DNA from: Planctomycetota bacterium | GTDB lineage: Bacteria > Planctomycetota > Planctomycetia > JALXBF01 | Assembly (NCBI GenBank): GCA_026991575.1 | Contig: JALXBF010000096.1 | Span: forward strand, 1-58,258 | DNA length: 58,258 nt | Reading direction: 5' to 3' | Shown: piece after piece, positions 6,001-36,318 of the stretch | How positions within the stretch are numbered: the first letter of the stretch is position 1 | How the letters are laid out: each line of letters starts with the position of its first letter | Notes under the pieces: generated by a model | Seen by the model: the letters and a program-made list of their open reading frames with translations, nothing else | Told to the model about the DNA's origin: nothing | The model's database searches: none | Program-made: the position numbers and the translations under genes

Positions 6001-7868
6001 CAGACGGACTGAGGGTAGCGCTGCTGCGCGAGCTCCAGTGTCTGGCTCATCGCGTCGTATTCGTTGAGCTGTAGCTGAATGGTGGCGACGACGGCGAAGG
6101 CCAGTTCCGAGGGGGACTGCTGGAGCTGTTGCTGCCAGCGGCGAAGCTCCTCTTCCAGGACGCCCATCCGCGAGCCGTGGCGGACCAGTGCCTCCAGCCA
6201 GGCAATGCGCTGAGCGGTGTCGACCTCCGGAAGCAATGCGCGGAGTTCGTCAAGGTGGTCCCGTACGGCCTGCCAGTCCTCTTGTTCTGCGGCTGCTTCC
6301 AGCTCCAGCCAGCGCAGTTCCCACCGGACGGCCGGCTCGGGCTGGTAGCGTGCCACCAGCTCATCCACCACGCGACCCAGCGCATCACGCGCTCCAAAGG
6401 ACGCCAGCAATTCAGCAATGCGGCGACCGTCGGCAAGGTTGACGTCGCGGTTCAACCGGTCCAGTAGCAGTGCTACCGCCTCCTGCTTGCGGCCGCGATC
6501 GTGCAAGAACCGCGCCAAGTACTCGACGTACTCGAACGCGTCACTCTTTGCCGCAGCCAGGCGGTAGTAGCGCTCGGCTTCTTCGTAAAGCTGCCGGGTT
6601 GCCAGTAGGTCCGCCAGGCGAACAGCGCGCAGCGGGTCCTCGGACTGTCTGGTGTAGATATTCGCCCAGGCATCTACCGCCTGACGACGGCGTTCTTCCT
6701 CGCTCAGGGACGAATCGAGCCAATAGCAGCGTCCGACGGCTTCCCACAGTTCGGCATTGCGCGGTTCTCGCTCGGCCAGTGCCGCATACAGTTGGCGGGC
6801 TTCACGGTAGCGGCCTTCCTGTTCATAGAGCTGGGCGAGGCGGCGAGCGATGCGCGGCTCGTCCGGAGCCCGCTCACGGAGCGATTCATACTGCCGAATC
6901 GCTTCGGCAATGGCTCCGCTGGCCGCCAGTACATCGGCTGCGGTTGTAGCGACGTCAAGGTCGTCGGGGTGCTCTTTGCGCCAGCGTTCCAAGAATGTGT
7001 TGATCTGTTTCGCTTCACCGCGAGCCTGGTACAGCGTTAGGATCTCGCGTAGCGCCTCCTGCCGATACCAGCTGCCGGGCGCGAGCTCCTCGAGTAACTT
7101 GGCCAATACATCGACAGCCTCGCTCAGCCGATCGCTATTGGCCAGGAGATGTGCTTTGCCGACGGCAGCGCGTAGCTTTTGATAGGCAGACCTGGCGTCC
7201 TGTAACAGGATGTCATAAAGCCGGAGGGCATCATCGGCGTAGCCCAGCGCAGCCAGCTCCTCGGCAACTTCCTCCTGTACGAGCCGATCCTGAGCGTACT
7301 GCCTGGCGAACTCTAGCCACAGGGCACGCGCGTCGTCCAACCGACCCAGCGCTGCCAGCAGAGCGCCGAGCCGCCGGTACGCTCGTTCCTGCTGTAGCGG
7401 GGGGACGTCGGGCAAGGACAGCAGCTTGCGGTATGCATCGGCCGCCTTCTGGTACCGCCGCTGCCTGTCCATGACCGTTGCCAGCGCAAGCCATCCGTGC
7501 CAGCGGTTCGGCTCAGAGCGAACTGCTTCGTTTGCCGCTTCTACGGCCCGTGCCGCGCTGCCGTACCGGCTCTCGACGTAGGCCAGAAGCACGGTGGCTG
7601 CCCAGCGTGATCGCTCATCCTGACGCAATTTGCTCAACCGGGCACGCAGCTCACCGATGCGCCCTTCGTCGGCGTACGCCTGAACGTAGCGGTCGAAGGC
7701 AGCGCCGGGTACGGGGTTCCGCAGCAGGACACGCTCGTACCGCTCAAGCAACCGCTGCTGCTGCTGGGCATAGGCAGGCAATGGGCTGCCGAAGCGGAAA
7801 ACGGATAGTGAAACAGCGAGGCCGGCGGGTACTGTCAGCAGCACGAGGCGGAGCACGCGCGCAATCAT
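1..7868 (-). CDS. Giant TPR-repeat protein, exported, C-terminus off the window
   Basis: One uninterrupted minus-strand reading frame runs from an ATG at 7868 to the left edge, at least 2,622 codons with no stop. The first ~35 residues (MIARVLRLVLLTVPAGLAVS, then a hydrophobic stretch ending near PLPAYAQ) look like a signal peptide or N-terminal anchor. The rest is almost entirely helix-turn-helix repeat with TPR-like signatures (for example EAARQLYAALAEREPRNAEL, LYEQEGRYREARQLY, LLQQGRVDQAQARWEAI). A non-repeat interruption occurs around 4.8-5.0 kb (GTGGQVIYAGSFVYSGMVYSG). It lies 228 bp downstream of the 8097-9590 gene on the same strand and may belong to the same transcription unit. TPR solenoids usually scaffold protein contacts, and no enzymatic motif was seen. 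The true C-terminus is not visible. Confidence is high that it is real and TPR-rich; its role is unknown. Confidence 0.9.
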   Translation of the reverse strand, partial: MIARVLRLVLLTVPAGLAVSLSVFRFGSPLPAYAQQQQRLLERYERVLLRNPVPGAAFDRYVQAYADEGRIGELRARLSKLRQDERSRWAATVLLAYVESRYGSAARAVEAANEAVRSEPNRWHGWLALATVMDRQRRYQKAADAYRKLLSLPDVPPLQQERAYRRLGALLAALGRLDDARALWLEFARQYAQDRLVQEEVAEELAALGYADDALRLYDILLQDARSAYQKLRAAVGKAHLLANSDRLSEAVDVLAKLLEELAPGSWYRQEALREILTLYQARGEAKQINTFLERWRKEHPDDLDVATTAADVLAASGAIAEAIRQYESLRERAPDEPRIARRLAQLYEQEGRYREARQLYAALAEREPRNAELWEAVGRCYWLDSSLSEEERRRQAVDAWANIYTRQSEDPLRAVRLADLLATRQLYEEAERYYRLAAAKSDAFEYVEYLARFLHDRGRKQEAVALLLDRLNRDVNLADGRRIAELLASFGARDALGRVVDELVARYQPEPAVRWELRWLELEAAAEQEDWQAVRDHLDELRALLPEVDTAQRIAWLEALVRHGSRMGVLEEELRRWQQQLQQSPSELAFAVVATIQLQLNEYDAMSQTLELAQQRYPQSVWLVQLSVQLYRTVGRYDLAAQAAGRVAELRPGEASGWLAEQVRLLRRIGEYEKALAVARRWRALRPADGQAHRAVIDLLQRLGRLDELDMAYAAAIRQVEDDPLLRLDYGKHLALTGRRIEAIEQLWQAFVQQEDDQQHAALAAVYRAFVEAGVEDEFVRRLEQWRADPERRIPGTLALARVYEAQQRLELAEREYRRVLLDEPRNQVALERLVAIHLDRGRYAQAQAYAEQLLRLRPGDVSLEARIAEILLQQGRVDQAQARWEAIVARAGERASQATLTLAGQLLRRGYESNALALLEARLRRDPTDWRARLLAATILTRQQRDQEALAHLEPLLNLPWRPKAQRRSSQGPPVRNQPPDDYSYWETLSTARDRWLGQLQAGTGGQVIYAGSFVYSGMVYSGSSPTVPDDPREGLACALTARLLVAERNGQLADYVQSLARAAGIQLQIETDKAPPVQVRSVDARKFAADPAAARLAMLALTLLGQEQALLQLARQLGQQTPPQLAWLACHITATFLLRPEPTVADTAASIRKELAKLARSCIADGTYERWLQILRHSAHPETAAPFAIDLAVYLLDAKQQAVARRLLRAALEGPARPRDQLNAAVCVLANAEQLPDELVDLAATAVKSTSDELRRKLSSGVSTMSLTPSRLTTSEYTNELLRAVEALLRAGRMDEAAELSAMLIELTLRPCWITSRTSAWVLSYPDRSIAVFLIGSDPIPPFPQRLPLRRYPHIPTLRLVWQAFSDESNRKRLDEHLARVGRENLASLPYLALARAIRAAEGGNLEAAAEILREAVHQSGDNGLRLCLVQVLANLGRHREALEAAAQIGAAWGAMYGLKWRAILRLALLLDDEDTARGAAQRLVRTTVTADVEVEALAAILVRLGLRRELATLARRPSTAYFRPLFAGTVAGQGARRAQQLLAEGKRDAALAVARRELARLARSPLGREQRARGVVSVLKNLGVLEQEIARLQQRLREQPGDRHAFGKLYLIYAGSGQQTQAEQLVREILQRRPYDYGLRYAYAVSLANQRRWQEAASEFAVLLRSAPQAIRNGQAVLDAFRNAGKLTEFRKLVTNAAQRTQFSIISTSSSLGWLPDAASTLSVRDPEAALELYRLALQAGSFYPWMRTQMLVVAVRTGKPKEVEAELRSWVLWLLDNELDKENRALVERVFLVEETPSRQGRYAGRLGREVILFPDYETLTGRMFTLLHDAGTAPRVEPLLERLRQADDPRTQLVGRLLYAYWLAQDGTRQSRSAAINLMRNALKEVSAAEVGDRRLVLLAACGLLEELIDARDLHTEVSEDLYRLAKLCQEMFQAVELRFRYRQQAVVYAVLGRYHARRGDRKLALEHYRALASIRHDSVSAYASTLRTIGSFLQWAAEDGIVEPVVDRLLEEITGAGSRSASRMADYANQLLQLVATKPENRAAVEAVAERMWQRLQQTRQLQGPQVDALRALLIALADTDRLQRLVRTAAENPAFVVSADNLRLYTNVLLAAGEDDLAADLYVRTLQTLSARAIRWPTSPPPRTPYFYRKLSTLIRERAALLPVLSTFGGSWILDRWLAPTGRRLLWTPEYTRKVLETFETVLAAGSSAGTMAGPRPGPSLSALAAMEQVHALLWLGRRHEALQRAFELIGSTRAGRTLNAAALLEFRHGTPFLATVAAHAAYDGRLEELLEILHRRSQSDPLLNPTKRYARFAAALAHGDRDTAERELRSLLEETAKLPAVAQSFWRSVVAAAPLLRKDFLRTLNVAQPSLPRTLTVYVAGRYMTSWVDEAAALAGDVATLQSLRTAQQQSRPPALYSYVPVIGPIERLDYLLAYSELEARNNPAAAIDHFRRALRWPSAGASGRFDGMLLRFRPMELYLEAIDALRRAGKLAELEQTLLQELEAGRDQNQVDAEPALTLALIYLRTDRAPEAVKLLRSLPEECTPASPFALLVAAAHVPNRAALACVEECYLRWPWAFVGSTDAVVALYDLCNQPLPITSERFRRTLAHWHE

Positions 7869-8096: not shown

Positions 8097-9590
8097 TTAG
8101 TCCCGAGGCTGGCTGGCCGGAGCCGGCGGTCTGATTAGCTCGAAGTAACGACGAATCAGTTCACGCTGGCCCAGTGGGATCGGTTCGGATTCCAGCACTT
8201 CTTGGGACAGCCGAAGGTACTGCTCGTACACCTCACCGTAGCTGCGCGTCGCCTTCTGTCGACCTTCCGGGCTGCTGGTCAGCTCCCGCTGTGACGGCCC
8301 TTCTGCTTGCATGCCCGTGAGTAACTCCAGCTGTTTGGCGGCATCCAGTGCGGTGGGATCGCCTAGCGTGTTTCCGGCGACGCCCCGACCCCACGAACTG
8401 GACGGCCTGTCGCTTTTTCCGCCACGCTGCGTCTGGCCGCCGCCCCCTTTTCCTGAACAGTTCGACTTACATAGCCCAATGGCCCGCTGGGCAGCGGACA
8501 GCGCCGAACACAGCCGGCTCAGCGCGGCGCGTCGCCTGAGAGCCTTGCCCAGCCGCTTGCAGGCAGAACAGAAGGCTTCGTTATCGGTTGAGGCCGTGTC
8601 GAGCAGCGATTCGGAAAGCTCTGTCAGGGCCCCTTCTAGGTCGACGGCGCCTTGCTCAGCAGCTGATGAGGCGACCCTGCGCAGCCGCTTCGCCAGCTGG
8701 CGACGTCCGTGCTGAGGAGGCTGCGTCTGCTTGTCGAATTCGCGGGCAGCCCGCTCGTAGTCCTTGTTCTTCAACGCTGCCGCGGCTGCCTGAAACTGGG
8801 GCATATCGCCAACGGCCTCGGCTAGCTCTGCCAGAACCGGTTCTGCTAGCTTCTGCACATACCGGGCACGCTGCTTGGCCAGGGCTTGCTGCAGTTCGCT
8901 CAGCGTTGCCAGGGCTGTACGGAGGTCGACGCCGGGTCGCTGCAACCGGTCAACTCGGGCTCGGAGCTCATCGATCAGTTCCTCCAGTTCTCGTTCACGG
9001 TATTCCCTGGCAGCGCGCCAGAGCTTATGGAGTTCGGTATGGACATCGGCGGCTGCTCGGATCACCTCCGGTGGTGGCGGCTCGGACTTGGCCGAGGCCT
9101 GCTCCGTGCGTGACGAAAGTGACAGCAATGTCAGGAACGCCACTGTGGCCGCGAAGGACAGTGGGGCTATGCGGGGCAGTCGAAACGGCAGCACTTGCCG
9201 GGCAACAACCTGTTCCAGTGCCGTTACCGCATCGGCCAGCTCCAGCTCTTCGCATGGTGTGCGCTGCTTCTTGCGCGCGAATGCCAGCGCACTGATCGTG
9301 CGGTCCTTCAGACCAGCCCGTTCGTCCACGGTACGCGCAAGCGCGGGCAAGTCCGGGTCGCGGATCAGTCCGGCGATGATCCACGCGAGGGTGATGCTGG
9401 AGAATGCGAGCACGGCAAGCGGTCGCAGCGTGTCACCGACGACGGTTTCGGTACCGATCAAGAAGGCCGCCACGACGGCTCCGATGGTCATGCCCCAACA
9501 ACCGGCTCGAACCGCGTTCTGCCAGCGGACGCGGCGTGCCAGCCGCTGCAGCCGACGTGTTAGTGGTGAAGCGAGACCGTGGCTGCTCAT
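8097..9590 (-). CDS. Membrane-anchored coiled-coil protein of unknown function
   Basis: A 497-residue protein starting MSSHGLASPL. This start is preferred because AGGAG lies 8 nt upstream of the ATG. An ATG at 9614 overlaps the stop of the upstream VWA gene as ATGA and is the alternative. Hydrophobic segments lie near residues 31-50, 57-76 and 142-160. A long charged helical region rich in E, R, L and A follows (about 170-330), typical of a coiled coil, and then a Gly/Ser-rich linker. The C-terminal part is again helical. I do not recognise the family with certainty. It resembles the large membrane/coiled-coil proteins that often accompany VWA proteins in planctomycetes. The close spacing to the VWA gene suggests co-expression and a shared cell-envelope role. 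Confidence 0.85.
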   Translation of the reverse strand: MSSHGLASPLTRRLQRLARRVRWQNAVRAGCWGMTIGAVVAAFLIGTETVVGDTLRPLAVLAFSSITLAWIIAGLIRDPDLPALARTVDERAGLKDRTISALAFARKKQRTPCEELELADAVTALEQVVARQVLPFRLPRIAPLSFAATVAFLTLLSLSSRTEQASAKSEPPPPEVIRAAADVHTELHKLWRAAREYRERELEELIDELRARVDRLQRPGVDLRTALATLSELQQALAKQRARYVQKLAEPVLAELAEAVGDMPQFQAAAAALKNKDYERAAREFDKQTQPPQHGRRQLAKRLRRVASSAAEQGAVDLEGALTELSESLLDTASTDNEAFCSACKRLGKALRRRAALSRLCSALSAAQRAIGLCKSNCSGKGGGGQTQRGGKSDRPSSSWGRGVAGNTLGDPTALDAAKQLELLTGMQAEGPSQRELTSSPEGRQKATRSYGEVYEQYLRLSQEVLESEPIPLGQRELIRRYFELIRPPAPASQPRD

Positions 9591-9610
9591 GTCAGGTTCT
9601 CCTCTGGGCG

Positions 9611-12139
9611 TCATCGCCCCCTGCCCCATTCGATCCGACGCAGTGCCACGTCCAGAACCAGAAGCACCATCGCTGCTGCTAGCAACCAGGGCCAGAGTGC
9701 CACGGGACGCTGGGCTGTACGACCGTCAGCGCGAAACGCTTCTTCAGGCCGTAGTCCGGCCCTGCCTCCGGACAGTCGCGCAATGGCTTGCATGAGCTGC
9801 TGGTCCGGTGGACCAACGCGAAGCTCCTCAGGGTAGCCTCTGGTCAGGACCCGGCTCAGGACACGTTCGGTCCCATCCGCCAGCCGTTGACGCACGCGCA
9901 ACTGATAGCTGCCCGGTTCACTGGCTTCAAACGTCGCCTCGAAGCGTCCCGGTGCTTTCGGGACCATGTCCACCTGCCGGCTGCTACCGTCAGGTGCGAG
10001 GACCAAGAGCTCGGTGTCGGCCTCGTTGACGAATTCGCCGTTGGTGGTCAGGGCATCCATGCGCACGGTAACCGTCTGCTCGTCCAGGTGCAAGGAGAGG
10101 CTTGTTCCTAGTGCTTCCGATTGACGCATGGCAAAGCGGAGCACCTGAGCCCAGAACGCGCCGAACTCCGGCCACTGCAGCCACTCCGCGGCCCACCGGC
10201 TGTGCACATCCGACGTGAAGGCCACGGTGATCCCCAGGCCGAACCGCCAGTAGGCCAAAAGCGGATGGCCGGGACCGGCCGTCAGGACCACCTCTGCAGT
10301 GGGTTTCGGCCGCGTGATCACGTAGCCGAGCAACAAGGGGGCGGCCTCGAAATCGATGCCTTCGGTCATCGGTGATGGCCGAACGACATCAATCAGAGTG
10401 GGTTCTTCGTTCAGTGCGGACTTAGTGGCCTGAGCCGTTTCCTTCGCGAAGATCTGTGGCAGGACCGTCGGGTCGTCGGTGCGGTAGTAGCGGCCGCGTC
10501 CCAGTTCCGCGATGCGCTGCAGCAATCCGGCGTCATGGTCGGGGCCGACACCGACCGTGGAGACGGTAATCCGCTCAGCTGCCATCTGGGTGGTGATTCC
10601 CTCGAAGTCACCCGGTGCAGAGATGCCATCGGTCAGCAGAATAACGTGCTTGACTTTCGCAGGCGTTCTGCTGAGCTGCTCATAGGCGGCAACCATCGGT
10701 GGGTACATCGCCGTGCCACCCCCGGCCTCCAGCCGCGCAACCGCATCTATCAGGAACGCACGATTTGCGGCCGACTGCAGCTCTGCAATCCAGAAGTATT
10801 CACTCTCGAAAGCGATCACACCTACCAGGTCACGTGGCCCTAGCAGTTCGATAGCGTTCCGTGCCGCCTCCTTGGCCATCTCGATCTTGATGCCCCCCAT
10901 CGAGCCGGACTTGTCGATGATCAGCACCATGGCCGTTACGGGTCGGTCCCGCTCGCGCTGGATGTCGCAACGCACGGGTAGCAATTGCTCGAGCACCGTC
11001 CGATAGTAGCCTCCTAACCCGAACGACTCATCGCCGCCAACCATCACCAGCCCGCCGCCAAACCGTTCCACGTACGTGCGAAGCTGTTCCATCTGTCGCG
11101 TGCTCAGCATCGTCGCGGGCACGTTCGACAGGACGACAGCATCGAATTCCAGCAGCTCTGCCAGGGTGTCCGGTAGACCGCGAGGGGGCCGAACCTCGAC
11201 ATTCATGCCGTTCCGCCGTAAAGCCCGGGCCAGATGACGGCCGAGATCGACACGTTGCTCGACGATGAGCACACGCGGGCGGCCTCGGCTATAGACGATC
11301 GTGCCGAGCTGATTGTTATCCAGAAACGTGTCGTGCTCCGCGCGGACGGCTGCTTCGTACCGTGCGAACTTCTCATCGTTGAGCCGATCGCGAAAGCGCA
11401 GGCGTTCGGTGCCCGGCTTCAACGTGAGACGGCGTTCGGCGACCTTCAGACCGTTCCGGTACAGTCGCACCGTAGCCGGCATCTGGCGATTGGCCGTCAC
11501 TTCGACGTCAACGTAAAAGGGTTCCTCCGGGGGAACCTGCGTCGGGCCAGATACTGCAGCAACCTGTACCTCCGGTTCGTCGCGTCCGGGCAAGGTGAGT
11601 GTGTCGACGGGAATACCAAGCGATGCCGCAGCCTGGCGCGCACGGCCCCGTGTCTGGCGGCCGTCACTCAGCAGCACGATCCGCGGCACGTAGCCGGGCG
11701 GGATCCGGGCTCTCGCGGTGAGCAACGCTTGTTCAATGTCCGTGTCCTTCTGGTCCGCTTCACCCAACGGCTCCCTGGCAGGCCACTCGGTCATTGTGTC
11801 GCCGGCGCGGGCGGCGAAGAACATGATGGCCGCACGGTGCGAACCTTTCTGTTTCAGTGCCTCGCGCACGAACGTTTCTGCTTCCTCGGTGGCACGTTGT
11901 CCGACACTCTGGCTGGCATCCACCAGAAACAGGACAAACTGTTGCGTGTTGCTACGGAGCAGCACGACGCGCGCAAGGGCGGCGGTCACCAGCAGCAGGA
12001 TCAAGGCGCGAACCACGGCCGAAGCGATGCGCTGGGCCAAGGAAAAATCCGAAAGGCTGCGCCAGAACCAGAGGCCGACCCAGGGCAAAAGCACGAGGAC
12101 TAACAACAGCCACCCGGGTTCTACCACTTCCAGGGCCAT
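9611..12139 (-). CDS. Double VWA-domain membrane protein with glutamine-amidotransferase-like middle
   Basis: An 842-residue protein starting MALEVVEPGW. The start is chosen because AGGAGGACA sits directly before this ATG; an ATG 10 codons upstream has no such site. Two membrane helices come first (about 9-30 and 40-65). A first VWA-like domain (FLVDASQSVGQ near residue 75) and an immunoglobulin-like stretch follow. Next comes an amidotransferase-like fold (LIVEQRVDLGRHLARAL to GGGLVMVGGDESFGLGG), then a second VWA domain with a full MIDAS motif (DKSGSMGG) and a later SDG/TDGIS element. A final helix (WPWLLAAAMVLLVLDVAL) anchors the C-terminus. Such proteins are metal-dependent protein-binding modules in the envelope. 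The layout parallels the two VWA genes at 48.7-53.3 kb. It is followed with near-overlap by the 8097-9590 gene. Confidence 0.92.
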   Translation of the reverse strand: MALEVVEPGWLLLVLVLLPWVGLWFWRSLSDFSLAQRIASAVVRALILLLVTAALARVVLLRSNTQQFVLFLVDASQSVGQRATEEAETFVREALKQKGSHRAAIMFFAARAGDTMTEWPAREPLGEADQKDTDIEQALLTARARIPPGYVPRIVLLSDGRQTRGRARQAAASLGIPVDTLTLPGRDEPEVQVAAVSGPTQVPPEEPFYVDVEVTANRQMPATVRLYRNGLKVAERRLTLKPGTERLRFRDRLNDEKFARYEAAVRAEHDTFLDNNQLGTIVYSRGRPRVLIVEQRVDLGRHLARALRRNGMNVEVRPPRGLPDTLAELLEFDAVVLSNVPATMLSTRQMEQLRTYVERFGGGLVMVGGDESFGLGGYYRTVLEQLLPVRCDIQRERDRPVTAMVLIIDKSGSMGGIKIEMAKEAARNAIELLGPRDLVGVIAFESEYFWIAELQSAANRAFLIDAVARLEAGGGTAMYPPMVAAYEQLSRTPAKVKHVILLTDGISAPGDFEGITTQMAAERITVSTVGVGPDHDAGLLQRIAELGRGRYYRTDDPTVLPQIFAKETAQATKSALNEEPTLIDVVRPSPMTEGIDFEAAPLLLGYVITRPKPTAEVVLTAGPGHPLLAYWRFGLGITVAFTSDVHSRWAAEWLQWPEFGAFWAQVLRFAMRQSEALGTSLSLHLDEQTVTVRMDALTTNGEFVNEADTELLVLAPDGSSRQVDMVPKAPGRFEATFEASEPGSYQLRVRQRLADGTERVLSRVLTRGYPEELRVGPPDQQLMQAIARLSGGRAGLRPEEAFRADGRTAQRPVALWPWLLAAAMVLLVLDVALRRIEWGRGR

Positions 12140-25589: not shown

Positions 25590-26203
25590 CATCTCCTGCT
25601 ACCTGGCGGCCTTCGGACAACCGGCTGCTTTGCGTCATAACGCAGCCAACTCGCGACGGTTGGGACGGATCGAACCCTCAGCTCGTTTGCCGTACCGGTC
25701 TGCACAGATCGACCGCCAAAGGAACGCTGTTCCACCTCCCGGTGGTTTGATCGAGAAGTCCATACGCGTCCTTTGAGGTCCGATCCGGAATTACGGCCGG
25801 CCCGGCTCGTTGCAGGGAAGGCTGCCAACGGACCATGCGCCACTCGTCCGGCTTCGTTGAGGAAACACAGGGGGGGCTAACTCAGGTGCACGCGTGTCCG
25901 GCCGTAACTGCGCCACCCATCCTACCTGCTTACGAACGTTGTTCGGGCGACCCGGATCTTGGTGAGCTTGCCGGGCAACTGCGCCCCGGTGGTCCTTCTG
26001 CTCACTTCAACAAGCTACCCCGTGATCGTTCGCCGCAGATCGGAGCGGTTCATGCGCTCTAGACCCCGCCGACCAGACCGGGCGTCAAGAGCCTGCGCAC
26101 CGCGACCATTGGGCGTTGCCGCATGACCGACCGTGTGTCAGGAAACCGGCTGCTCAGGCGTAGGTCGTATGGAGTGACCAGCTAAACCGTGCCGGAGGCA
26201 AGC
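25590..26203. other. Intergenic region (614 bp)
   Basis: No gene, RNA or repeat was recognised. It ends with GGAGG five bases before the ATG of the first nuclease-like gene. It marks the start of the gene-poor accessory stretch that contains the CRISPR locus. Confidence 0.5.
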
Positions 26204-26974
26204 ATGACGATCACAGCAGGTCGCTGCCAGTATGGGTTGTTGGAAGCGGTGGCACCAAACCATCCGCTTTGTCGGCGGATTCAGATGGGCGGTTTGAGGG
26301 TGGCCGTGGCCCAGCATCTGTTGCCCAGGAACCGAGATGCGGTGTGGGTCACCTGCCGCATCGGTACCGAGTACGCAAGGAATCAGCTGCTTCAGGAAGT
26401 GTTTTACGCCTGGCGGCTCCCCATGTCGTGTCATCCGGACGTTGGCTACCAGGTGGTCATAAGCCGCTACCCGGACCAGCAGGTGCGGCGTACGGCAGAG
26501 CTGCTTCTGCGTGCTCAGCGGGCGGGGCTTCTTGGTGCTTATGCCGTCGAGATGCGCCCCAGCGGCTGGATAGTCCGGGCGCTGCGCGATTGCGCGAGCC
26601 GACGCTACTTCCTCGGGCAGTGGCTCGAGCTGTTTGCACTAATCGTCGCTTCCCGGCTAGTACGTGCTCGCTGCCCTGGGTTACCCGAGCCGCTCACTCG
26701 GGTCGTCGTGGCCGACGAGCTCGGCAACGCGGTGCGTGAGCTGGACGTTGTCGTGCCCCTTCCGGATGGCAAGCTCCTGATTGTGGAGGCCAAGGCGGGG
26801 TTCAACGATGAGGGGGACAGACAGCTTAGCGACGCGGCGACGCGCTGGCGGCTGAAGCGATCGCATGCGGTGTTACTGCAGCCGGGGGGGAGGACCCGCA
26901 TACACGATCAGTACATCGTTATGGGACCGCGCGCCTATGTCCTGCATCTGCGAACTGTTCTGACCACACCCTGA
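26204..26974 (+). CDS. PD-(D/E)XK nuclease-like protein resembling Card1/DUF1887, copy 1
   Basis: A 256-residue protein starting MTITAGRCQY, with GGAGG 5 nt upstream. The C-terminal half has the nuclease-type triad pattern: GQWLE (Glu142), ELDVVV (Asp181), and 14 residues later LLIVEAKAG (Glu195-x-Lys197). This arrangement matches the endonuclease domain of the DUF1887/Card1-Can2 family, where GxWLE, E-x-D-V and ECK occur in the same order. The N-terminal ~130 residues (HPLCRR, DAVWVTCRIGTEYARNQLLQ, YAWRL) are strongly conserved with the next gene, but I see no CARF-type Rossmann signature there. Conserved cysteines occur at 23, 51 and 157. It is soluble. It sits 3.5 kb from the CRISPR array on the opposite strand. 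Nuclease activity is inferred from motifs only; an effector role in defence is inferred from location. Confidence 0.78.
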   Translation: MTITAGRCQYGLLEAVAPNHPLCRRIQMGGLRVAVAQHLLPRNRDAVWVTCRIGTEYARNQLLQEVFYAWRLPMSCHPDVGYQVVISRYPDQQVRRTAELLLRAQRAGLLGAYAVEMRPSGWIVRALRDCASRRYFLGQWLELFALIVASRLVRARCPGLPEPLTRVVVADELGNAVRELDVVVPLPDGKLLIVEAKAGFNDEGDRQLSDAATRWRLKRSHAVLLQPGGRTRIHDQYIVMGPRAYVLHLRTVLTTP

Positions 26975-27153
26975 TCAATCCGTCGTTTGTTGGTCCGTTC
27001 CGAGGCGAACGAGGGGTTGGTGGCCGACGGTGGCCGCCTGGGATCGGGGTGAGCGCGTGGCGGTCTCACCGGTCCCGGGCCGACGCCTGCGGCGTGCTGA
27101 TGCAGCCACCGATTGTCAGAGTTTGCGATCGGAGCGCGTTGATAGGGTGTCGT

Positions 27154-27969
27154 ATGGCGTGGGAAGTAAGTGTGCGACTGTCGAGGTACGCCGTGGCAGG
27201 ACAGCGAGAGTATGGGTTGATCGAGCGGGTTCCGTACGAGCACCCGCTGTGTCGGCGACTGCAGTTGGGGCAGTTGTCCGTCTCGGAGGCCTGGCGGTTG
27301 AATCCCAGCAACCGCGCAGCCGTCTCGGTAACCTGTCGGCTAAGCATCGGGTACGAACAGAACAAGCTGCTCCAGGATCTGCTGTATGCCTGGCGCTTGC
27401 TCGCACCGCATGCATCAGATCCAAACGCGGAGATCGTCATTCGCCCAGCCCGCTACCCGCGTGAGCAGGTGGCGCAGGCCTTCCAGCTGCTGGTGCGTGC
27501 CCGACAGGCCCGGCTGATGTCCAAGCAGCCGATCCGGTTCAGGCAGGAGGGTTGGCGTGTCCGACCGATCGCGCACGTCCAAACTCGGTCCTACTTCACG
27601 GGACGATGGCTGGAACTGTTTGCTCTGATCGGGGCGTGGCTTGTGCACCGCGTCCGCTGTCGTGAGCTGCCGGAGCCGTTAGGGCGGGTCGTGATCAATG
27701 GCGCGGGCGGCGAAGCTGCTTGCGAGTTCGACGTCGTGGTGCCAATGCCCAATGGGAAGTTCGTCTTTGTGGAGGCGAAGACGGGGGCGGCTCCTGGTGC
27801 AGGCGGCAAGCTGGCTGAAGCGGCATCGCGTTGGGGAGTTGGCAGGAGGTATGCCGTGTTGCTGAAGCCGAGCGGAGAGCCCCAGATCTACGACAACTAC
27901 ATTGCGATGGGACCACGCCATTACATCGGCTACCTGAAGATGCTCGTCAGCCGAACTTCTAGCCAGTAA
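27154..27969 (+). CDS. PD-(D/E)XK nuclease-like protein resembling Card1/DUF1887, copy 2
   Basis: A 271-residue protein if read from ATG 27154 (MAWEVSVRLS). The frame is open from 27049 and an internal GTG is also possible, so the start is uncertain. It is a paralogue of the preceding gene, with about half of residues identical by eye. Shared blocks: YGL.E.V, HPLCRR.Q, VTCR, NKLLQ/NQLLQ, YAWRL, RWLELFALI and LPEPL.RVV. Nuclease motifs are intact: GRWLE (Glu154), EFDVVV (Asp193), FVEAKTG (Glu207-x-Lys209), with the same 14-residue Asp-Glu spacing as copy 1. The C-terminal IYDNYIAMGPRHYI matches IHDQYIVMGPRAYV of copy 1. The tandem arrangement suggests duplication followed by divergence, perhaps forming a heterodimer. 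Confidence 0.75.
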   Translation: MAWEVSVRLSRYAVAGQREYGLIERVPYEHPLCRRLQLGQLSVSEAWRLNPSNRAAVSVTCRLSIGYEQNKLLQDLLYAWRLLAPHASDPNAEIVIRPARYPREQVAQAFQLLVRARQARLMSKQPIRFRQEGWRVRPIAHVQTRSYFTGRWLELFALIGAWLVHRVRCRELPEPLGRVVINGAGGEAACEFDVVVPMPNGKFVFVEAKTGAAPGAGGKLAEAASRWGVGRRYAVLLKPSGEPQIYDNYIAMGPRHYIGYLKMLVSRTSSQ

Positions 27970-30572: not shown

Positions 30573-31127
30573 GTTTCAATCCCATCGTGGTTCGATTGGT
30601 CGGTGCGAGCTTCATGAAAACTTTGGTTTTGGAGAGGATTTGTATTGGTTTCAATCCCATCGTGGTTCGATTGGTCGGTGCGAGCTTGAGAAGGTGCTCG
30701 ACGAGCTCGAGGGTGCCGGCGGTTTCAATCCCATCGTGGTTCGATTGGTCGGTGCGAGTTTTTGGAGGAGTGCTATGAAGCTCGAAAGTATATTCGTTTC
30801 AATCCCATCGTGGTTCGATTGGTCGGTGCGAGATGTCTACAATGTTTCACACAAGAGATTGTTAGTTACGTTTCAATCCCATCGTGGTTCGATTGGTCGG
30901 TGCGAGGGGGAAGCGGGGTGGCGGAGATTAAGCTCCGAACGGGCGTTTCAATCCCATCGTGGTTCGATTGGTCGGTGCGAGAACGAAAAACCTGTAGTTA
31001 TATTTGGATTGCCTAGGAGTTTCAATCCCATCGTGGTTCGATTGGTCGGTGCGAGGAGGAGAAGCCAGTAATAGTGTTTGGGGCGCCTAGGTTTCAATCC
31101 CATCGTGGTTCGATTGGTCGGTGCGAG
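30573..31127 (-). CRISPR. CRISPR array: 8 perfect 37-nt repeats, 7 spacers of 35-38 nt
   Basis: Identical repeats lie at 30573-30609, 30648-30684, 30722-30758, 30796-30832, 30870-30906, 30945-30981, 31019-31055 and 31091-31127. On the plus strand each begins GTTTCAATCCCATCGTGG and ends GGTCGGTGCGAG. Read on the minus strand the repeat ends in GGGATTGAAAC, and ATTGAAAC is the usual 8-nt crRNA 5' handle of type III and related systems. Transcription is therefore inferred from right to left, the same strand as the cas genes. Spacer lengths left to right are 38, 37, 37, 37, 38, 37 and 35 nt. An eighth spacer-like segment (30535-30572) lies beyond, next to the degenerate repeat. Several spacers are AT-richer than the host. 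Confidence 0.98.
30982..31090 (+). other. Two leader-proximal spacers matching one diverged coding site
   Basis: Spacers 30982-31018 and 31056-31090 agree at about 22 of 32 aligned bases. In the plus frame they read NEKPVVIFGLPR and EEKPVIVFGAPR, starting at the same codon. Most differences are synonymous or conservative. The peptide resembles the strand and start of a P-loop (FGxPRSGK-type). Confidence 0.8.
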
Positions 31128-31607
31128 GCACCTCAGCGCAACTGGCGACGTAGCAATCGGTTGTGATCGGTTTTGCCCGGAGCTCGCGAACCAGCCGCTG
31201 CGAGAGCGCCGGCTGCGCGCGGGCGCCGTCGCATCCTATTGCCAAACAACTGGTTGCGGTTGCCCGCAGGTGGGCCATTTTCGGCCGCGCCAGAGGTGCG
31301 GGCAACAGGGCGCCGGCCGGCCAGCCAGCGGCAGGACAAGGCCGGACGGCGACAACGCACACAGGATCACTTGTCCGGACAAGATGCCGCACCTGCAGCC
31401 TCCACCCATCCTAGCTAGTGCCGCGGGTAGCGACAAGGAGGTCCGAGGTCTCAGAAGCGCGGTCGCTCAAGCCGTGCGACGGGGGCCGGGACAGAGCTGC
31501 CAAGAGGCGGGAGCAGCCGGGGCGGGCGTGCCGCCGCGAAGAGGAGCTGCGGATGCCCAGCAGGCATCCGTTTGGTCCGGGGCGCAGCATCGCGCGCAAC
31601 CACCCGC
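31128..31607 (-). promoter_or_regulatory. Probable CRISPR leader region (480 bp)
   Basis: It lies between the leader-proximal repeat and the end of cas2. Repeat handle orientation, the decayed repeat at the far end and the adjacent adaptation genes all place the leader here. It is GC-rich. No convincing -35/-10 pair was pinned down, and frames on both strands look non-coding. Confidence 0.6.
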
Positions 31608-31958
31608 TCAGCGATCCTCCTCATCGGTGCTGGCACGTGAAGCCGAGCGACCGGGGACGAGCCGCAGGCCGTCAGCCCCGGCCGACGCTATGGCGGCGTC
31701 CGGGCAGAGCCAGCCCGGCAGACCGCGGCATCGTCCGAGAAAGGTTTCTTCCGAACGCAGCTGCCACGCTTGCACGACATCGGCTCTCAGGTCCATCACC
31801 GCGGCAGCACTGTCCAACAGCGCTTCCAGCTCACGTACCGTGCCGCGGAACAAGAACACCGACCGCTGCGTGCGCAACGCGTACCGCTCCATCACACGGG
31901 CAACCCGCTGCAACCGCCTGGGATCGGCGATGTCATAGGCAACCACGAACATTGCCAT
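31608..31958 (-). CDS. cas2: CRISPR-associated endoribonuclease Cas2
   Basis: A 116-residue protein starting MAMFVVAYDIADPRRLQRVA, with GGAG 8 nt upstream of the ATG. A GTG at 31997 overlaps the cas1 stop as GTGA and would add 13 residues. The ferredoxin-fold signature is clear: strand 1 MFVVAYDI with the conserved Asp8, helix RLQRVARVMERYALR, then TQRSVFLFRGTVRELEALL. The last ~45 residues extend past the usual Cas2 core (about 85-95) as a hydrophilic tail ending RASTDEEDR. Cas2 dimers bridge Cas1 dimers in the spacer-integration complex. It is the last gene of the RT-cas1-cas2 unit, 480 bp from the array. Confidence 0.93.
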   Translation of the reverse strand: MAMFVVAYDIADPRRLQRVARVMERYALRTQRSVFLFRGTVRELEALLDSAAAVMDLRADVVQAWQLRSEETFLGRCRGLPGWLCPDAAIASAGADGLRLVPGRSASRASTDEEDR

Positions 31959-31993
31959 CCGCTTGTCTCCGTGCTGTTGACCGGTGGTCTCTG

Positions 31994-33037
31994 TCACGAC
32001 TGAGCCGGCTGAGAATCTGGGCCCCGTGCCGACCGTGCCGGCGGGCGGCGGTCGAGGTGACGGAGAAGTTGGAAAAACCTTTCGATCTCGTTGTTAACAC
32101 GCCGACTGTGGTCGTCGCGACTCCAGGCTGCTTCCCATTGGGCTAGGACTCGAGAGAACGCGGCCGGACTTAGGATTACGCCGCCCTCGGGCCCTCGGCG
32201 AAAATCACCCGGGGCCACGATGCCGGTGTTGCATAGCCTCAAGACCCAGCGATCCACGATGCGCACCCGGAGCGGTTCGATCAGGTCACAGGCCAGTGCG
32301 GGACGGCCAGGTCGCGGCTCGTGCAAGGCGCCCAGAGCTACCTCCAGGCCCGCCGCGCGACAGCGTGCGACCAGACGCGACGTCAGCAGCGTGTACCCAA
32401 GGCTCAGCAGGGCGTTTACGGGGTCCCGCGGCGGCCGGCGATTCCGCCCGTGGAACGACCATGGCCGCTGGAGCCGCTCGCCCAAGATCCGAAACCAGAC
32501 CGCCGCCGCCGATCCCTCGATCCCCAGCAGTTCACCATGACTCGTGGCCCGGTCGGCTGCCTGACGGAACCGCCGTAACTCGCCGACCAACGCCCCGGTT
32601 ACGCCCCCGTGGCGTTGGAAGTAGCGTGCCGCCTCCAGCTGTGAAGCGATCTTGCGGACGACGACGTCCTGAGCAAGCACGAACTTCGCCTCCGGACGGC
32701 CGAGCACTCGGTACTGCATCAGCCTGATCGTGACGCTACCGTCTACCGGGGGCGCCAATAGACCACGAAGCCGAACGCCGCGGTAGGAAAGGAACGCTAC
32801 CAGAACGTCGTTCAACAACAGTTCATGCACCGCTGCGTCCGTTACCCCGACACGGCCGTAGCAGAGCACCAGCTCCAGCGGACGCAGATCGAGCGCAAGC
32901 TGCACTCCCTCTGCCGTCGCAAACGCTACCCGACCGTTAATCACCTTCAGCGTGCCCGGACCGACCAAGTGCGCGACGGGTGTTGCTACCACCTTCGGCC
33001 GACGCCTCGGACCGCTCTGCGTTTCCCGTGCTCTCAT
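31994..33037 (-). CDS. cas1: CRISPR-associated integrase Cas1
   Basis: A 347-residue protein if started at ATG 33037 (MRARETQSGPRRRPKVV); the frame is open to 33136. The N-terminal beta domain begins near KVVATPVAHLVGPGTLKVIN. The helical catalytic domain has the metal-binding residues in order: Glu174 in LLGIEGSAAAVWF, His239 in LGALHEPRPGRPALA, and Glu254 in CDLIEPLR. The length is close to normal. The 5' end overlaps the 3' end of the reverse transcriptase gene by about 100 nt in a different frame, so Cas1 is not fused to it as written. No strong ribosome binding site precedes the ATG, consistent with translational coupling to the RT gene. It catalyses spacer integration with Cas2. Confidence 0.94.
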   Translation of the reverse strand: MRARETQSGPRRRPKVVATPVAHLVGPGTLKVINGRVAFATAEGVQLALDLRPLELVLCYGRVGVTDAAVHELLLNDVLVAFLSYRGVRLRGLLAPPVDGSVTIRLMQYRVLGRPEAKFVLAQDVVVRKIASQLEAARYFQRHGGVTGALVGELRRFRQAADRATSHGELLGIEGSAAAVWFRILGERLQRPWSFHGRNRRPPRDPVNALLSLGYTLLTSRLVARCRAAGLEVALGALHEPRPGRPALACDLIEPLRVRIVDRWVLRLCNTGIVAPGDFRRGPEGGVILSPAAFSRVLAQWEAAWSRDDHSRRVNNEIERFFQLLRHLDRRPPARSARGPDSQPAQS

Positions 33038-34787
33038 GGCCCGTACCCGACTGTTCCTGGCGTTGCCGCTTCTTCCACCGATTGCGGCGCTCCCGCTTAC
33101 GCCGCGACCCGTTGTGCCGTGCCCCTGTGCCTTCATTCCGCTTCGTGTCGGCGGCCTCCTCCTGATCCGGTCGCATCAACGCCGGCGATTCCGGTTTCCG
33201 CTGCCGCGACGCCGGTACGTAACGGATCACCGGATCCGGTACGGCTGGACCGGCCGGCATCGTGGCTTCTGGCGGGGACGGCGGCAGTAACGCGGCCACG
33301 CCGAGGTCGTCGTCTTCCTGCCGTGGCTCGGCAAGCGACCCATCCGCCGTCACCTGCTCGGGGACCATCCAGGCCGGTTTCACGACCACGTTCTCGTAGC
33401 GGTGTGGTCGCAGCGTTCCTAACACCGTAAGCTGCACGCCGTCGACCTCCCAGGTGCGGAACCCGCCCGGAAGTCGTACCAGATGGCGTTTCCGCAGCTC
33501 GGCCCTGCTGAGGCCGAGCACCGTGCGCAGCAGACGCTCCACGCGGCCGAACACGTGATCATCCACGTCCAGGAAGACCTCATGAGCGTTCAGCGTCGTA
33601 CGGTACACACCAGCCCACTGCTTTAGCGTCGTGTTAAGCGACTTGATCCATTGCCCCAGATCAAACGCACTGGCCTCGATCCGTTCGCTCGGAGGCATGG
33701 TCATCTCGTCAATCTGTTCGATCAGTTCCAGGACCCGCTGCTCGGGAACCTCGCACGCGTATCGCGTGCCCTCAAACCACGGTTTCCGCCGCGGCACGAA
33801 CCGCAGCCCGAGCCACTCGAATCCGTTATCCGCCCGGCTGTACCGCCACCACCGCGCCGTCGTTCTGAGCCGTAGCTTCCGCGCAGCCCGGTGCACGGTG
33901 TGCAATGCCCGCCACATTGACCGTCGCGTGCCTGCGATGAGCAGGAGATCGTCAGCGTACCGGAAGAAACTGACGGTGCCTTCCGAGGCGGCCAGCTGGC
34001 CCAATGCTTCGTCCATCGGATGCAGGTACAGATTGCACAGCAAAGGCGACAGCGGGCTTCCCTGCAGAATGCCGACGTGACGAGGGGAGAGCCACCCGAT
34101 TCGCTTCGCCCCGGCGTATAGGACGGTCTTCACTAGTGCCAGGAAGCGACCATCTGAGACGCGATCGCCGAGCATTCCAAGCAGGAGGTCAACGTCGATC
34201 GAGCCAAAGCAGTCCCGCACGTCAACCTTGGCGACCCAGGCAACGTTAGCAGGCGAGAGGTTACGATCGGCCAGCGCACGGCACACCATCGCAGCGGCTC
34301 GGGCTACCCCCTGGCCCGGGCGGTACCCGAAGCTACGCCGATCGAAGGTCGGCTCAAGCACCGGTTCCAGCACCTGCTTCAGCGCCGCATGCACGATTCG
34401 ATCACGCACGTTCAGCAACGTAAGCGTGCGGATGCCACCGGTGCCATCGTCTTTCGGCACGTCGAACTGACGGTACGGGCCGGGGCGGTATTCACCCCGC
34501 ACGAGCTGCTCTGCTAACTCCTCCAGCACGATCCCGATCCGTGACGCTAGCTTCGCGCACGTCTGCCCGTCAGGGCCGGGAGTGTCGGCGCCGTCGGAGC
34601 GTGCGACGCGGTCCCAGGCAGCTAGCAGGTTCCTGCGGTCCGTCAACCGGGCCATCATGTACTTGGCAGGACGACGGCCGTAGTTGGTCTTCAAGAAGAT
34701 TTCGCGCTGCAGGTCAGTAAGGTCCTCTTTCACGTTGCTGCGAGTAACCGGTCTAACCCTTTCCTCAAACAGTGAGACCGTAACCAT
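32937..34787 (-). CDS. CRISPR-associated reverse transcriptase (group II intron-like)
   Basis: A 616-residue protein starting MVTVSLFEER, with AAGGAG 9 nt upstream. RT motifs are in order: RTLTLLNVRDRIVHAALKQV (120-139), FGYRPGQG (153-160), KVDVRDCFGSID (187-198, Asp189), GILQGSPLSPLLCNLYLHPM (239-258), and the active site FRYADDLLLIAG (275-286, Asp279/Asp280), then GFEWLGLRF (322-330). A thumb-like and maturase-like region continues to about 480. No HNH endonuclease or intron RNA is evident, and the gene sits directly before cas1. RTs linked to cas1 can allow spacers to be taken from RNA. Residues 490-616 form a Pro-rich then strongly basic, low-complexity tail (SRRKRERRNRWKKRQRQ at 561-577), part of which overlaps cas1. 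Confidence 0.93.
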   Translation of the reverse strand: MVTVSLFEERVRPVTRSNVKEDLTDLQREIFLKTNYGRRPAKYMMARLTDRRNLLAAWDRVARSDGADTPGPDGQTCAKLASRIGIVLEELAEQLVRGEYRPGPYRQFDVPKDDGTGGIRTLTLLNVRDRIVHAALKQVLEPVLEPTFDRRSFGYRPGQGVARAAAMVCRALADRNLSPANVAWVAKVDVRDCFGSIDVDLLLGMLGDRVSDGRFLALVKTVLYAGAKRIGWLSPRHVGILQGSPLSPLLCNLYLHPMDEALGQLAASEGTVSFFRYADDLLLIAGTRRSMWRALHTVHRAARKLRLRTTARWWRYSRADNGFEWLGLRFVPRRKPWFEGTRYACEVPEQRVLELIEQIDEMTMPPSERIEASAFDLGQWIKSLNTTLKQWAGVYRTTLNAHEVFLDVDDHVFGRVERLLRTVLGLSRAELRKRHLVRLPGGFRTWEVDGVQLTVLGTLRPHRYENVVVKPAWMVPEQVTADGSLAEPRQEDDDLGVAALLPPSPPEATMPAGPAVPDPVIRYVPASRQRKPESPALMRPDQEEAADTKRNEGTGARHNGSRRKRERRNRWKKRQRQEQSGTGHESTGNAERSEASAEGGSNTRRALGRSGHAEGD

Positions 34788-35076: not shown

Positions 35077-36318
35077 CTAGCGGACGGGGTCCCAGGGCTT
35101 CCACTGGCCGGTCTTGTCGGGAGCTTCCAGGATGGGACGGCGGCCACGCGCCAGCGCGGCGGAGAGGAGCTCAAGCGGGACGTACGCGACCCCTTGCTCG
35201 CCGACATACGCTTCCACCTCGGCCAGCCGGACCGGCATACCGACCAGCTCCGGTGCGGGATCCCCCGGGGTGACCAGCTCCTCGGCAACGGGGCTGGAAT
35301 CCAGGGCTATGGCAAGCGCGACCCTGCGCAGCTCCAGCGGCAGTCCCCGCCCGAGCCGCGCCAGGTCGTCGCGCCATTGGACAATCGCCACATACTGGCG
35401 GTCCGGGCTGGCCCACTTGACTCCTTCCATGACCTGCGGCGTACCGGCGGGCGCCGCGGCCAGCGCAACTCCCTCAGGGGGCCTGCTGCGAGCCTGCTCT
35501 GCCGCAGCCTGGTACGCGGCCACCAGCTCCTGCAACCGCTGTACGACGACCCTTTGCTCCCACAGGGGCGAGCCAACCAGCAGGTGCGCCGGCGGCGGGG
35601 GGGGCGGTCCGGAAAGGAAACGTTCGCAGCGCACGACCTCTTCCAGCAGCGGTACGAACTTGCCCAGTGTACCGACCAGTTCGTCCCGGTTGGGGTCGGA
35701 CGCTTCAACAACCGCGCGGACATAGCGTTCCAGCGGCAGGAATAGGTCGGACGATTCAGTTAGTGCGTGCCGCGCCAGCTCCAGGGGCTGCTCCACGGCC
35801 GCAAGCTCTCGACCTCCCCCACCTGGGGCCGACCGAGCTACAGCCAAGACCAGCTCGGCATCGTCCAGGTCATCAAGCAGTGTCATTGCCCAGTGCGCGT
35901 CCGCTTCGCCTTGCTCGACCGCCTGCTCGTGCCACTCTTGCCATTCCCGCAGCCAGCCGGTCGGCCGCATCACGTCCAGCGCCATGGTGGCCAGTTCGCC
36001 CAGGCGCTCATGCATGGTTTCTTCGCACCGACGCAAGCCGGCCTCCTTGGCCGCGTCGCTGAACCACTCAAAACCATGCTTCGGTACAGACGTGCCGAAG
36101 GCCGCTGCTATGTACTCGTCACGCGTGCGCCTGAGCCGGGCCCAGGCTGCGAGCAGCTCGTAGGCCACTTGCGGATCCGAGGTGTCAGCAGCGGGCAGCA
36201 ATTCGAAGAACCAGTCGGCCCATTCTGCAACCAGCGGCAGCGGATCGACCGGTTCAGAGAGTTCGGCCAACTGCCGAAGCACACGCTGCAGCCTTTCGGC
36301 GATCGTTTTCGTGTCCAT
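35077..36318 (-). CDS. Unknown acidic helical protein upstream of the CRISPR RT
   Basis: A 413-residue protein starting MDTKTIAERLQRVLRQLAEL. It is acidic and almost wholly helical in appearance: WADWFFELLPAADTSDPQ, GWLREWQEWHEQAVEQGEA, TLLDDLDDAELVLAVARS and ERYVRAVVEASDPNRDELVG. A run of six prolines occurs in LSGPPPPPPAHLLVG. The C-terminal part (PDRQYVAIVQWRDDLARLGR, then GEQGVAYVPLELLSAALARG) may be a separate domain. No family was recognised. It lies 289 bp upstream of the reverse transcriptase on the same strand, so it could belong to the CRISPR transcription unit. That link is positional only. Confidence 0.7.
   Translation of the reverse strand: MDTKTIAERLQRVLRQLAELSEPVDPLPLVAEWADWFFELLPAADTSDPQVAYELLAAWARLRRTRDEYIAAAFGTSVPKHGFEWFSDAAKEAGLRRCEETMHERLGELATMALDVMRPTGWLREWQEWHEQAVEQGEADAHWAMTLLDDLDDAELVLAVARSAPGGGGRELAAVEQPLELARHALTESSDLFLPLERYVRAVVEASDPNRDELVGTLGKFVPLLEEVVRCERFLSGPPPPPPAHLLVGSPLWEQRVVVQRLQELVAAYQAAAEQARSRPPEGVALAAAPAGTPQVMEGVKWASPDRQYVAIVQWRDDLARLGRGLPLELRRVALAIALDSSPVAEELVTPGDPAPELVGMPVRLAEVEAYVGEQGVAYVPLELLSAALARGRRPILEAPDKTGQWKPWDPVR

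What the first reader, a model, noticed from the sequence alone, without database searches (positions are those of the whole stretch)
30982..31090. Two adjacent spacers hit the same P-loop-like coding site in two diverged targets
Spacers 6 and 7 share about 22 of 32 bases and read NEKPVVIFGLPR and EEKPVIVFGAPR in the same frame, starting at the same codon. Differences are mostly synonymous or conservative, as expected from two homologous genes. The sequence resembles the start of a P-loop (FGxPRSGK-type), so an ATPase gene of a plasmid or virus is a likely target. They are the two spacers nearest the inferred leader, so probably the newest. Repeated sampling of one site suggests hot-spot acquisition or selection for targeting a slowly evolving motif.
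Basis: seen in the sequence. Interest (0 to 1): 0.7.

Follow-up and report, generated by a model that had tools for sequence, protein, structure and literature searches.

The report
CRISPR spacers repeatedly hit same sites
The two newest spacers in this bacterial CRISPR array do target the same protein-coding spot in two diverged relatives of one gene, and they are the tip of a pattern: about half of the genome's 48 spacers pile up on a few such spots of some small, fast-changing, still unidentified invader, probably one sampled as RNA by the reverse transcriptase encoded next to the array.

Summary
Spacers 6 and 7 (30982-31018, 31056-31090) match at 23 of 35 bases in register; no shuffle reaches that. 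They read xEKPVVIFGLPR and xEKPVIVFGAP on the strand complementary to the crRNA. Other arrays of the same genome hold a third copy of the site (SEKPMLVFGSPR, newest spacer of contig C187) and a probable fourth. About 25 of 48 spacers fall on seven recurrent coding sites: 14 sense-peptide pairs against 0-1 in shuffles, mismatches 48/26/75 by codon position. The third copy settles the strand, which two spacers alone did not. The array lies beside cas2, cas1 and a YADD reverse transcriptase; the genome has Cmr (III-B) effectors. The studied RT III-B system does not orient new spacers, so uniform antisense orientation suggests selection for working guides. Pair density implies an effective target of about 1-2 kb. 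No protospacer was found in phages, plasmids, viral contigs, relatives or host. The P-loop ATPase reading is weak: the motif best fits sulfotransferase-type loops, but the third copy continues K/N instead of S/T. Best reading: RT-CRISPR immunity against a small, diverse RNA replicon; the target remains unidentified.

The parts
30573..31127 (-). CRISPR array: 8 repeats of 37 nt, 7 spacers; repeat in transcript direction CTCGCACCGACCAATCGAACCACGATGGGATTGAAAC, which ends in the ATTGAAAC crRNA 5' tag
   Evidence: strand from the repeat 3' end and conserved leader
30982..31018 (+). Spacer 6, target-sense reading NEKPVVIFGLPR plus one base A (site F)
31056..31090 (+). Spacer 7 (newest), target-sense reading EEKPVIVFGAP plus AG (site F)
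30759..30795 (+). Spacer 3: contains GGAGGAG-TGCT-ATG AAG CTC GAA AGT ATA TTC, i.e. a Shine-Dalgarno-like stretch and a start codon (MKLESIF) in the same target-sense direction
   Evidence: read directly
31128..31290 (-). Leader, conserved next to all four arrays of the genome (TTTTGCCCGGACCTCGC... block)
31608..31997 (-). cas2
   Evidence: Pfam CRISPR_Cas2 2.2e-11
31994..33136 (-). cas1
   Evidence: Pfam Cas_Cas1 1.6e-68; GALHEPRPGRPALACDLIEP conserved stretch
32937..34787 (-). Reverse transcriptase of group II intron type, separate gene upstream of cas1, catalytic YADD present
   Evidence: RVT_1 6.9e-26, TIGR04416 5e-64 below its cut-off, PADLOC RT 6e-61, YADD at residue 277

Best explanation
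This is the newest end of an RT-associated type III-B CRISPR array. Shown: spacers 6 and 7 and one spacer of array C187 (a fourth in C182 is probable) come from the same codon stretch of diverged homologues of one gene; about half of the genome's 48 spacers behave this way at seven sites; matched pairs read better on the strand complementary to the crRNA in 13 of 14 cases. Inferred: an RT-Cas1-Cas2 module captured pieces of transcripts or RNA genomes of a small, abundant, rapidly diverging replicon, most likely an RNA phage or RNA replicon; spacers in the useful antisense orientation were kept because Cmr complexes with these crRNAs bind the coding RNA; the site recurs because the target is small and the site slowly evolving, perhaps also because capture favours certain positions.
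For: Sense-peptide pairs scoring 30 or more among the 48 spacers: 14, against 0, 1, 0 in shuffles. Mismatch by codon position 48/26/75 over 127 codons. Sense beats antisense in 13 of those 14 pairs. RT, Cas1 and Cas2 beside the array and Cmr2/Cmr3/RAMP genes on C183, C32 and C27. Simulated sampling needs an effective target of about 1 kb (61% identity) to 2 kb (72%) to give so many pairs; a 39-kb target gives fewer than 1. The three site-F spacers with full motif sit at leader ranks 0, 1 and 0 (P = 0.0017 for three random spacers). The Marinomonas RT III-B system acquires in either orientation and needs antisense spacers for interference (PMC5576922), so uniform orientation implies selection. 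RT III-B spacers matching RNA phage and Obelisk RNAs are on record (PMC7508674; PMC13096302). No DNA match in phages, plasmids, host genome outside the arrays, or relatives.
Against: No protospacer was found, so the RNA nature of the target is not shown. No recurrent site carries a recognisable RdRp motif B or C, nor the Obelisk GYxDxG motif. Absence from DNA collections also fits an unsampled DNA phage; whether the viral contig collection holds RNA viruses was not tested. The size estimate assumes uniform sampling and would be too small if capture has strong hot spots. RT-associated spacers elsewhere mostly match DNA phages where they match at all (PMC5513706).
Confidence: 0.5

Rival explanations
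1. The target is a family of DNA phages or plasmids; the recurrent sites are transcripts of a few conserved, highly expressed genes, and type III-B interference selects antisense spacers. The RT may help but the invader has a DNA genome.
For: Known matches of RT-associated spacers are mostly DNA phages (PMC5513706). A Shine-Dalgarno plus ATG stretch in spacer 3 fits any bacterial-type mRNA. Type III-B interference against transcribed DNA is established (PMC5576922).
Against: No match of any spacer in 50,697 phage records or of the recurrent ones in 72,556 plasmid records, and no IMG/VR contig carries two sites. A 40-kb genome sampled uniformly would give fewer than one recurrent pair.
Confidence: 0.35
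2. Site F is the phosphate-binding loop of a sulfotransferase-like P-loop protein, encoded by a phage or plasmid. This concerns which protein is hit and can hold together with either reading of the genome type.
For: EKPVVIFGLPR against EKPVFVFGIPR of cellular sulfotransferase-like proteins scores 49, above all shuffles (maximum 37). All 51 codon-pattern hits in species genomes are that family. Phage proteins start MKPFFIFGLPRSRTAWLS. The base after R in spacer 6 is A, compatible with T or S.
Against: The third spacer continues CGA AA (K or N), the probable fourth reads FGKPRN, where the loop needs S/T. Spacers have V/I/L where the cellular family has F. The hits were found with a pattern made from the spacers, so the match is partly by construction. 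Other recurrent sites do not match these proteins.
Confidence: 0.25
3. The resemblance is due to duplication of an array unit followed by mutation, or to repeated modules inside one target gene, not to two homologous targets.
For: Array C187 does contain adjacent spacers differing by one base (8548 and 8621), which may be such a duplication.
Against: Spacers 6 and 7 differ at 12 of 35 positions in a codon-aware pattern while their flanking repeats are identical, and the same site recurs in another array. Repeated modules within one gene are not excluded for the other sites.
Confidence: 0.05
4. Chance similarity of two spacers.
For: Spacers are short; no tool result supports it.
Against: 0 of 20,000 and 0 of 5,000 shuffles, and a third spacer at the same site.
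Confidence: 0.01

Closest known systems
RT-associated type III-B CRISPR-Cas adaptation modules (Marinomonas mediterranea RT-Cas1; Arthrospira platensis III-B)
   Same: group II intron type RT next to cas1 and cas2, type III-B (Cmr) effectors in the genome, spacers without database matches
   Different: RT is a separate gene, not fused to Cas1; arrays lie on at least four contigs; [quoted passage not shown]
CRISPR spacers matching RNA phages or viroid-like RNAs (levi-like contig and Accumulibacter III-B spacer, PMC7508674; Obelisk-matching spacers, PMC13096302)
   Same: type III-B / RT-linked setting; small, diverse coding RNA as the inferred target
   Different: here the target sequence is unknown and inferred only from spacers resembling each other; no Obelisk or RdRp signature was seen
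Sulfotransferase-type P-loop proteins (EKPLFVFGLPRTGTT family; phage KPFFIFGLPRSRTAWLS proteins)
   Same: most of 11 residues at the motif identical or similar
   Different: third and probable fourth spacer break the S/T after PR; no other shared segment

Membership tests
RT-associated type III CRISPR adaptation module | RT of group II intron lineage fused or adjacent to cas1 | tested here: met
   adjacent and overlapping genes, RVT_1 6.9e-26, YADD present
RT-associated type III CRISPR adaptation module | Cas1 and Cas2 beside a CRISPR array | tested here: met
RT-associated type III CRISPR adaptation module | type III effector available in the genome | tested here: met
   Cmr2/Cas10, Cmr3 and RAMP genes on C183; further Cmr2-like genes on C32 and C27; none tested positive beside the array in the window
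RT-associated type III CRISPR adaptation module | spacers acquired from RNA | not testable with these tools
   needs an acquisition assay with an intron-interrupted reporter
P-loop (sulfotransferase-type) target for site F | hydrophobic strand then PR(S/T)x(S/T) | tested here: not met
   strand and PR met; residue after PR is K/N in the C187 spacer and N in the C182 spacer; only a first base A in spacer 6
P-loop (sulfotransferase-type) target for site F | other spacers fall in the same protein | tested here: not met
   no spacer outside site F scores above shuffles against these proteins
RNA virus target | RdRp motifs B/C (GDD) among recurrent peptides | tested here: inconclusive
   none seen by eye in the translations; VNVFSVDFKTL resembles a motif A only loosely; 12-residue pieces cannot decide
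Obelisk target | GYxDxG motif of Oblin-1 | tested here: inconclusive
   not seen in the peptides, but hot-spring Oblins lack it too (PMC13096302); circular RNA form not testable

The most novel reading that the evidence does not exclude
The 48 spacers are a fossil record of an undescribed, small RNA phage or RNA replicon lineage of this deep-branching bacterium: seven peptide segments (for example RGTLVRPFWALLERPIWVGDE, WELGLALRDEKWRWVSISIF, YVNVFSVDFKTL, (K/R)WVDGKxVGLLTLKD, EKPVVIFGLPR) belong to its one or few proteins, recovered from recurrence among spacers without any protospacer.
Probability: 0.4. Interest if true: 0.85.

Novelty: new member of a known kind. Interest (0 to 1): 0.6.

Why it matters
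The source of spacers in RT-carrying CRISPR systems is an open question: about 2.5 million such spacer sequences from Arthrospira found almost no match (PMC5513706). Here spacers can be matched to each other at the protein level instead of to databases, which shows coding strand, selection on orientation and a small effective target, and yields 12-23 residue peptide segments that can be searched for directly in metatranscriptomes. If the target proves to be an RNA replicon, it would tie a lineage of RNA phages to a bacterial host and show what RT-CRISPR is for in nature.

Tried and rejected
Degenerate DNA patterns for sites F, W, V and D, and a concatenated pseudo-protein, scanned over IMG/VR (8 scans): only chance hits, a phage P-loop family, and no contig with two sites. 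blastn of all spacers against phages and of recurrent spacers against plasmids: nothing. tblastn of two assembled peptides against phages: no match and one chance hit. Pfam, PHROGs and PDB searches of assembled peptides: nothing. Self-targeting of the host: only the arrays match. Relatives: site W and site D patterns occur in no other of about 400 genomes each. Site F pattern in 84,980 species genomes: only sulfotransferase-like proteins, no arrays. The order contains no other genome, so no near relatives' arrays could be added. Arrays of class relatives with RT (L065, L067) do not show the same strength of recurrence. A tmRNA family search was uninformative.

Full report
What is there. The window holds a CRISPR array of eight identical 37-nt repeats and seven spacers of 35-38 nt at 30573-31127. 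At the leader end, spacers 6 (30982-31018) and 7 (31056-31090) agree at 23 of 35 bases without a shift; none of 20,000 shuffles does better than 20. In the + frame they read NEKPVVIFGLPR and EEKPVIVFGAP(R/S). The last residue of spacer 7 and the S that would follow R in spacer 6 are made with repeat bases, so 'PRS' is not evidence. The repeat read on the - strand ends in ATTGAAAC, the usual type III crRNA tag (general knowledge), and four arrays of the genome share a conserved leader on the right with degenerate repeats on the far side in two of them. Transcription is therefore from the right, the two spacers are the newest, and the + reading is the strand that the crRNAs would bind.

Which strand codes. 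With two spacers the question was open: the opposite strand in the wobble-aligned frame reads LGNPNITTGFS and LGAPNTITGFS, score 40 against 45. The genome settles it. It has three further arrays with the same or nearly the same repeat, on contigs C182, C187 and C47, and 48 spacers in all. The newest spacer of C187 (9806-9844) reads SEKPMLVFGSPR and scores 45 and 44 with spacers 6 and 7 in sense, 27 and 29 in antisense. A C182 spacer (5185-5221) reads EGALIFGKPRN and probably hits the same place (score 31, at the edge of chance).

The wider pattern. Seven sites recur: F (FGxPR, 4 spacers), W (RGTLVRPFWALLE, RGTLIEPFWALL, ALLERPIWVGDE), D (WELGEALKDEK, WELGLALRDEKW, LDQALEDEKW, NEIISDEKW and others), V (KWVDGLQV, RWVDGKKV, DGKHIGLLTLKD), H (TWIKLHNN, WIKLNNN), Y (HVNVF, YVNVF and YVNVFSVDFKTL) and C (CVQYVGSF, CIQKVGVF). 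That is about 25 of 48 spacers; the weaker assignments within D, C and the fourth F spacer are judgement. At a peptide score of 30 or more there are 14 sense pairs against 0, 1 and 0 in shuffled sets. Mismatches fall 48/26/75 on codon positions 1/2/3, as expected of purifying selection on protein. Sense exceeds antisense in 13 of the 14 pairs. Spacer 3 of the window carries a Shine-Dalgarno-like stretch and ATG in the same direction.

The machinery. On the - strand beside the array lie cas2, cas1 and a separate group II intron type reverse transcriptase with YADD. Three Cas10/Cmr2-like genes with RAMP neighbours lie elsewhere in the genome, including Cmr2-Cmr3 on C183. This meets the testable features of an RT-associated type III-B system. 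In the studied Marinomonas system new spacers enter in either orientation and only antisense ones work (PMC5576922). The uniform antisense orientation seen here is therefore best read as selection for working guides against coding RNA; that is an inference.

How big is the target. Simulating 48 random 37-nt draws from diverged homologues, 14 detectable pairs need a target of about 1 kb at 61% or 2 kb at 72% pairwise identity; a 39-kb genome yields fewer than one. Strong hot spots in a larger genome would mimic this. Start positions agree within 1 nt for all three F spacers, the W pair and one D pair (5 of 13 pairs, against a simulated fraction of about 0.15), which hints at positional preference, but the pairs are not independent. 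The three full F spacers sit at leader ranks 0, 1 and 0 (P = 0.0017), so the encounter looks recent and repeated.

What is the target. No spacer matches phages, and no recurrent spacer matches plasmids or the host outside the arrays. Patterns for the sites find no viral contig with two sites and no relative. For site F the only cellular proteins with the codon-level motif are sulfotransferase-like loops EKPxFVFGLPRTGTT (51 of 51), and some phage proteins begin KPFFIFGLPRSRTAWLS. A small RNA replicon is my leading reading because of the RT, the small effective size, the lack of DNA matches and precedents of III-B spacers against RNA phage and Obelisk RNAs (PMC7508674, PMC13096302). It is not shown.

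Verdict. Observation confirmed and extended; homologous-site reading supported; P-loop ATPase target doubtful; RNA replicon target likely but open. The system is a known kind; the recurrence of sites as a way to see an unseen target is the interesting part.

Noticed in passing
L010 (G000 contig C187) 8548-8583 and 8621-8656: Adjacent spacers identical but for one base (CAT/TAT): either duplication of an array unit with a mutation or two captures from a virus population. A third spacer on C47 (675-711) overlaps them almost identically in DNA (TAYGTAAATGTRTTTTC).
   Followed up: partly
L065 and L070 (class relative G184): Arrays of another genome show milder recurrence in the same sense: LSEDDKLLVGQY / EDDRLLVGQYSG / VGQYTGPRLPEG and SSDWSLVWDK / ASDWVMVWDQS / IIWDQSARTV, plus Shine-Dalgarno and ATG spacers (GGAGGGAGCCATG, GGAGATCTATG).
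   Followed up: partly
window 26189-26974 and 27049-27969, + strand: Two tandem, similar-looking proteins with weak PADLOC hits to the nuclease part of CARF-PDDEXK / Csx1 models (E 5e-5 and 4e-4), no Pfam or NCBIfam hit: possible type III accessory nucleases.
   Followed up: partly
window 35077-36318, - strand: 413-residue protein just upstream of the CRISPR reverse transcriptase with no Pfam or PADLOC match.
   Followed up: no
L072 (C32) 4971-6620 and L073 (C27) 8708-10366: Two compact (about 550 residues) Cmr2/Cas10-like genes with RAMP neighbours in addition to the standard-size Cmr2 on C183.
   Followed up: partly
L081, L083, L085, L087, L089, L097 (IMG/VR): Phage proteins of about 200 residues beginning with a conserved KPFxxFGLPRSRTAWLS loop, sulfotransferase-like P-loop family, found through the site F pattern.
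   Followed up: no
L047 (G113 contig C115, 131783-132772): cas1 of a relative carries one in-frame TGA.
   Followed up: no
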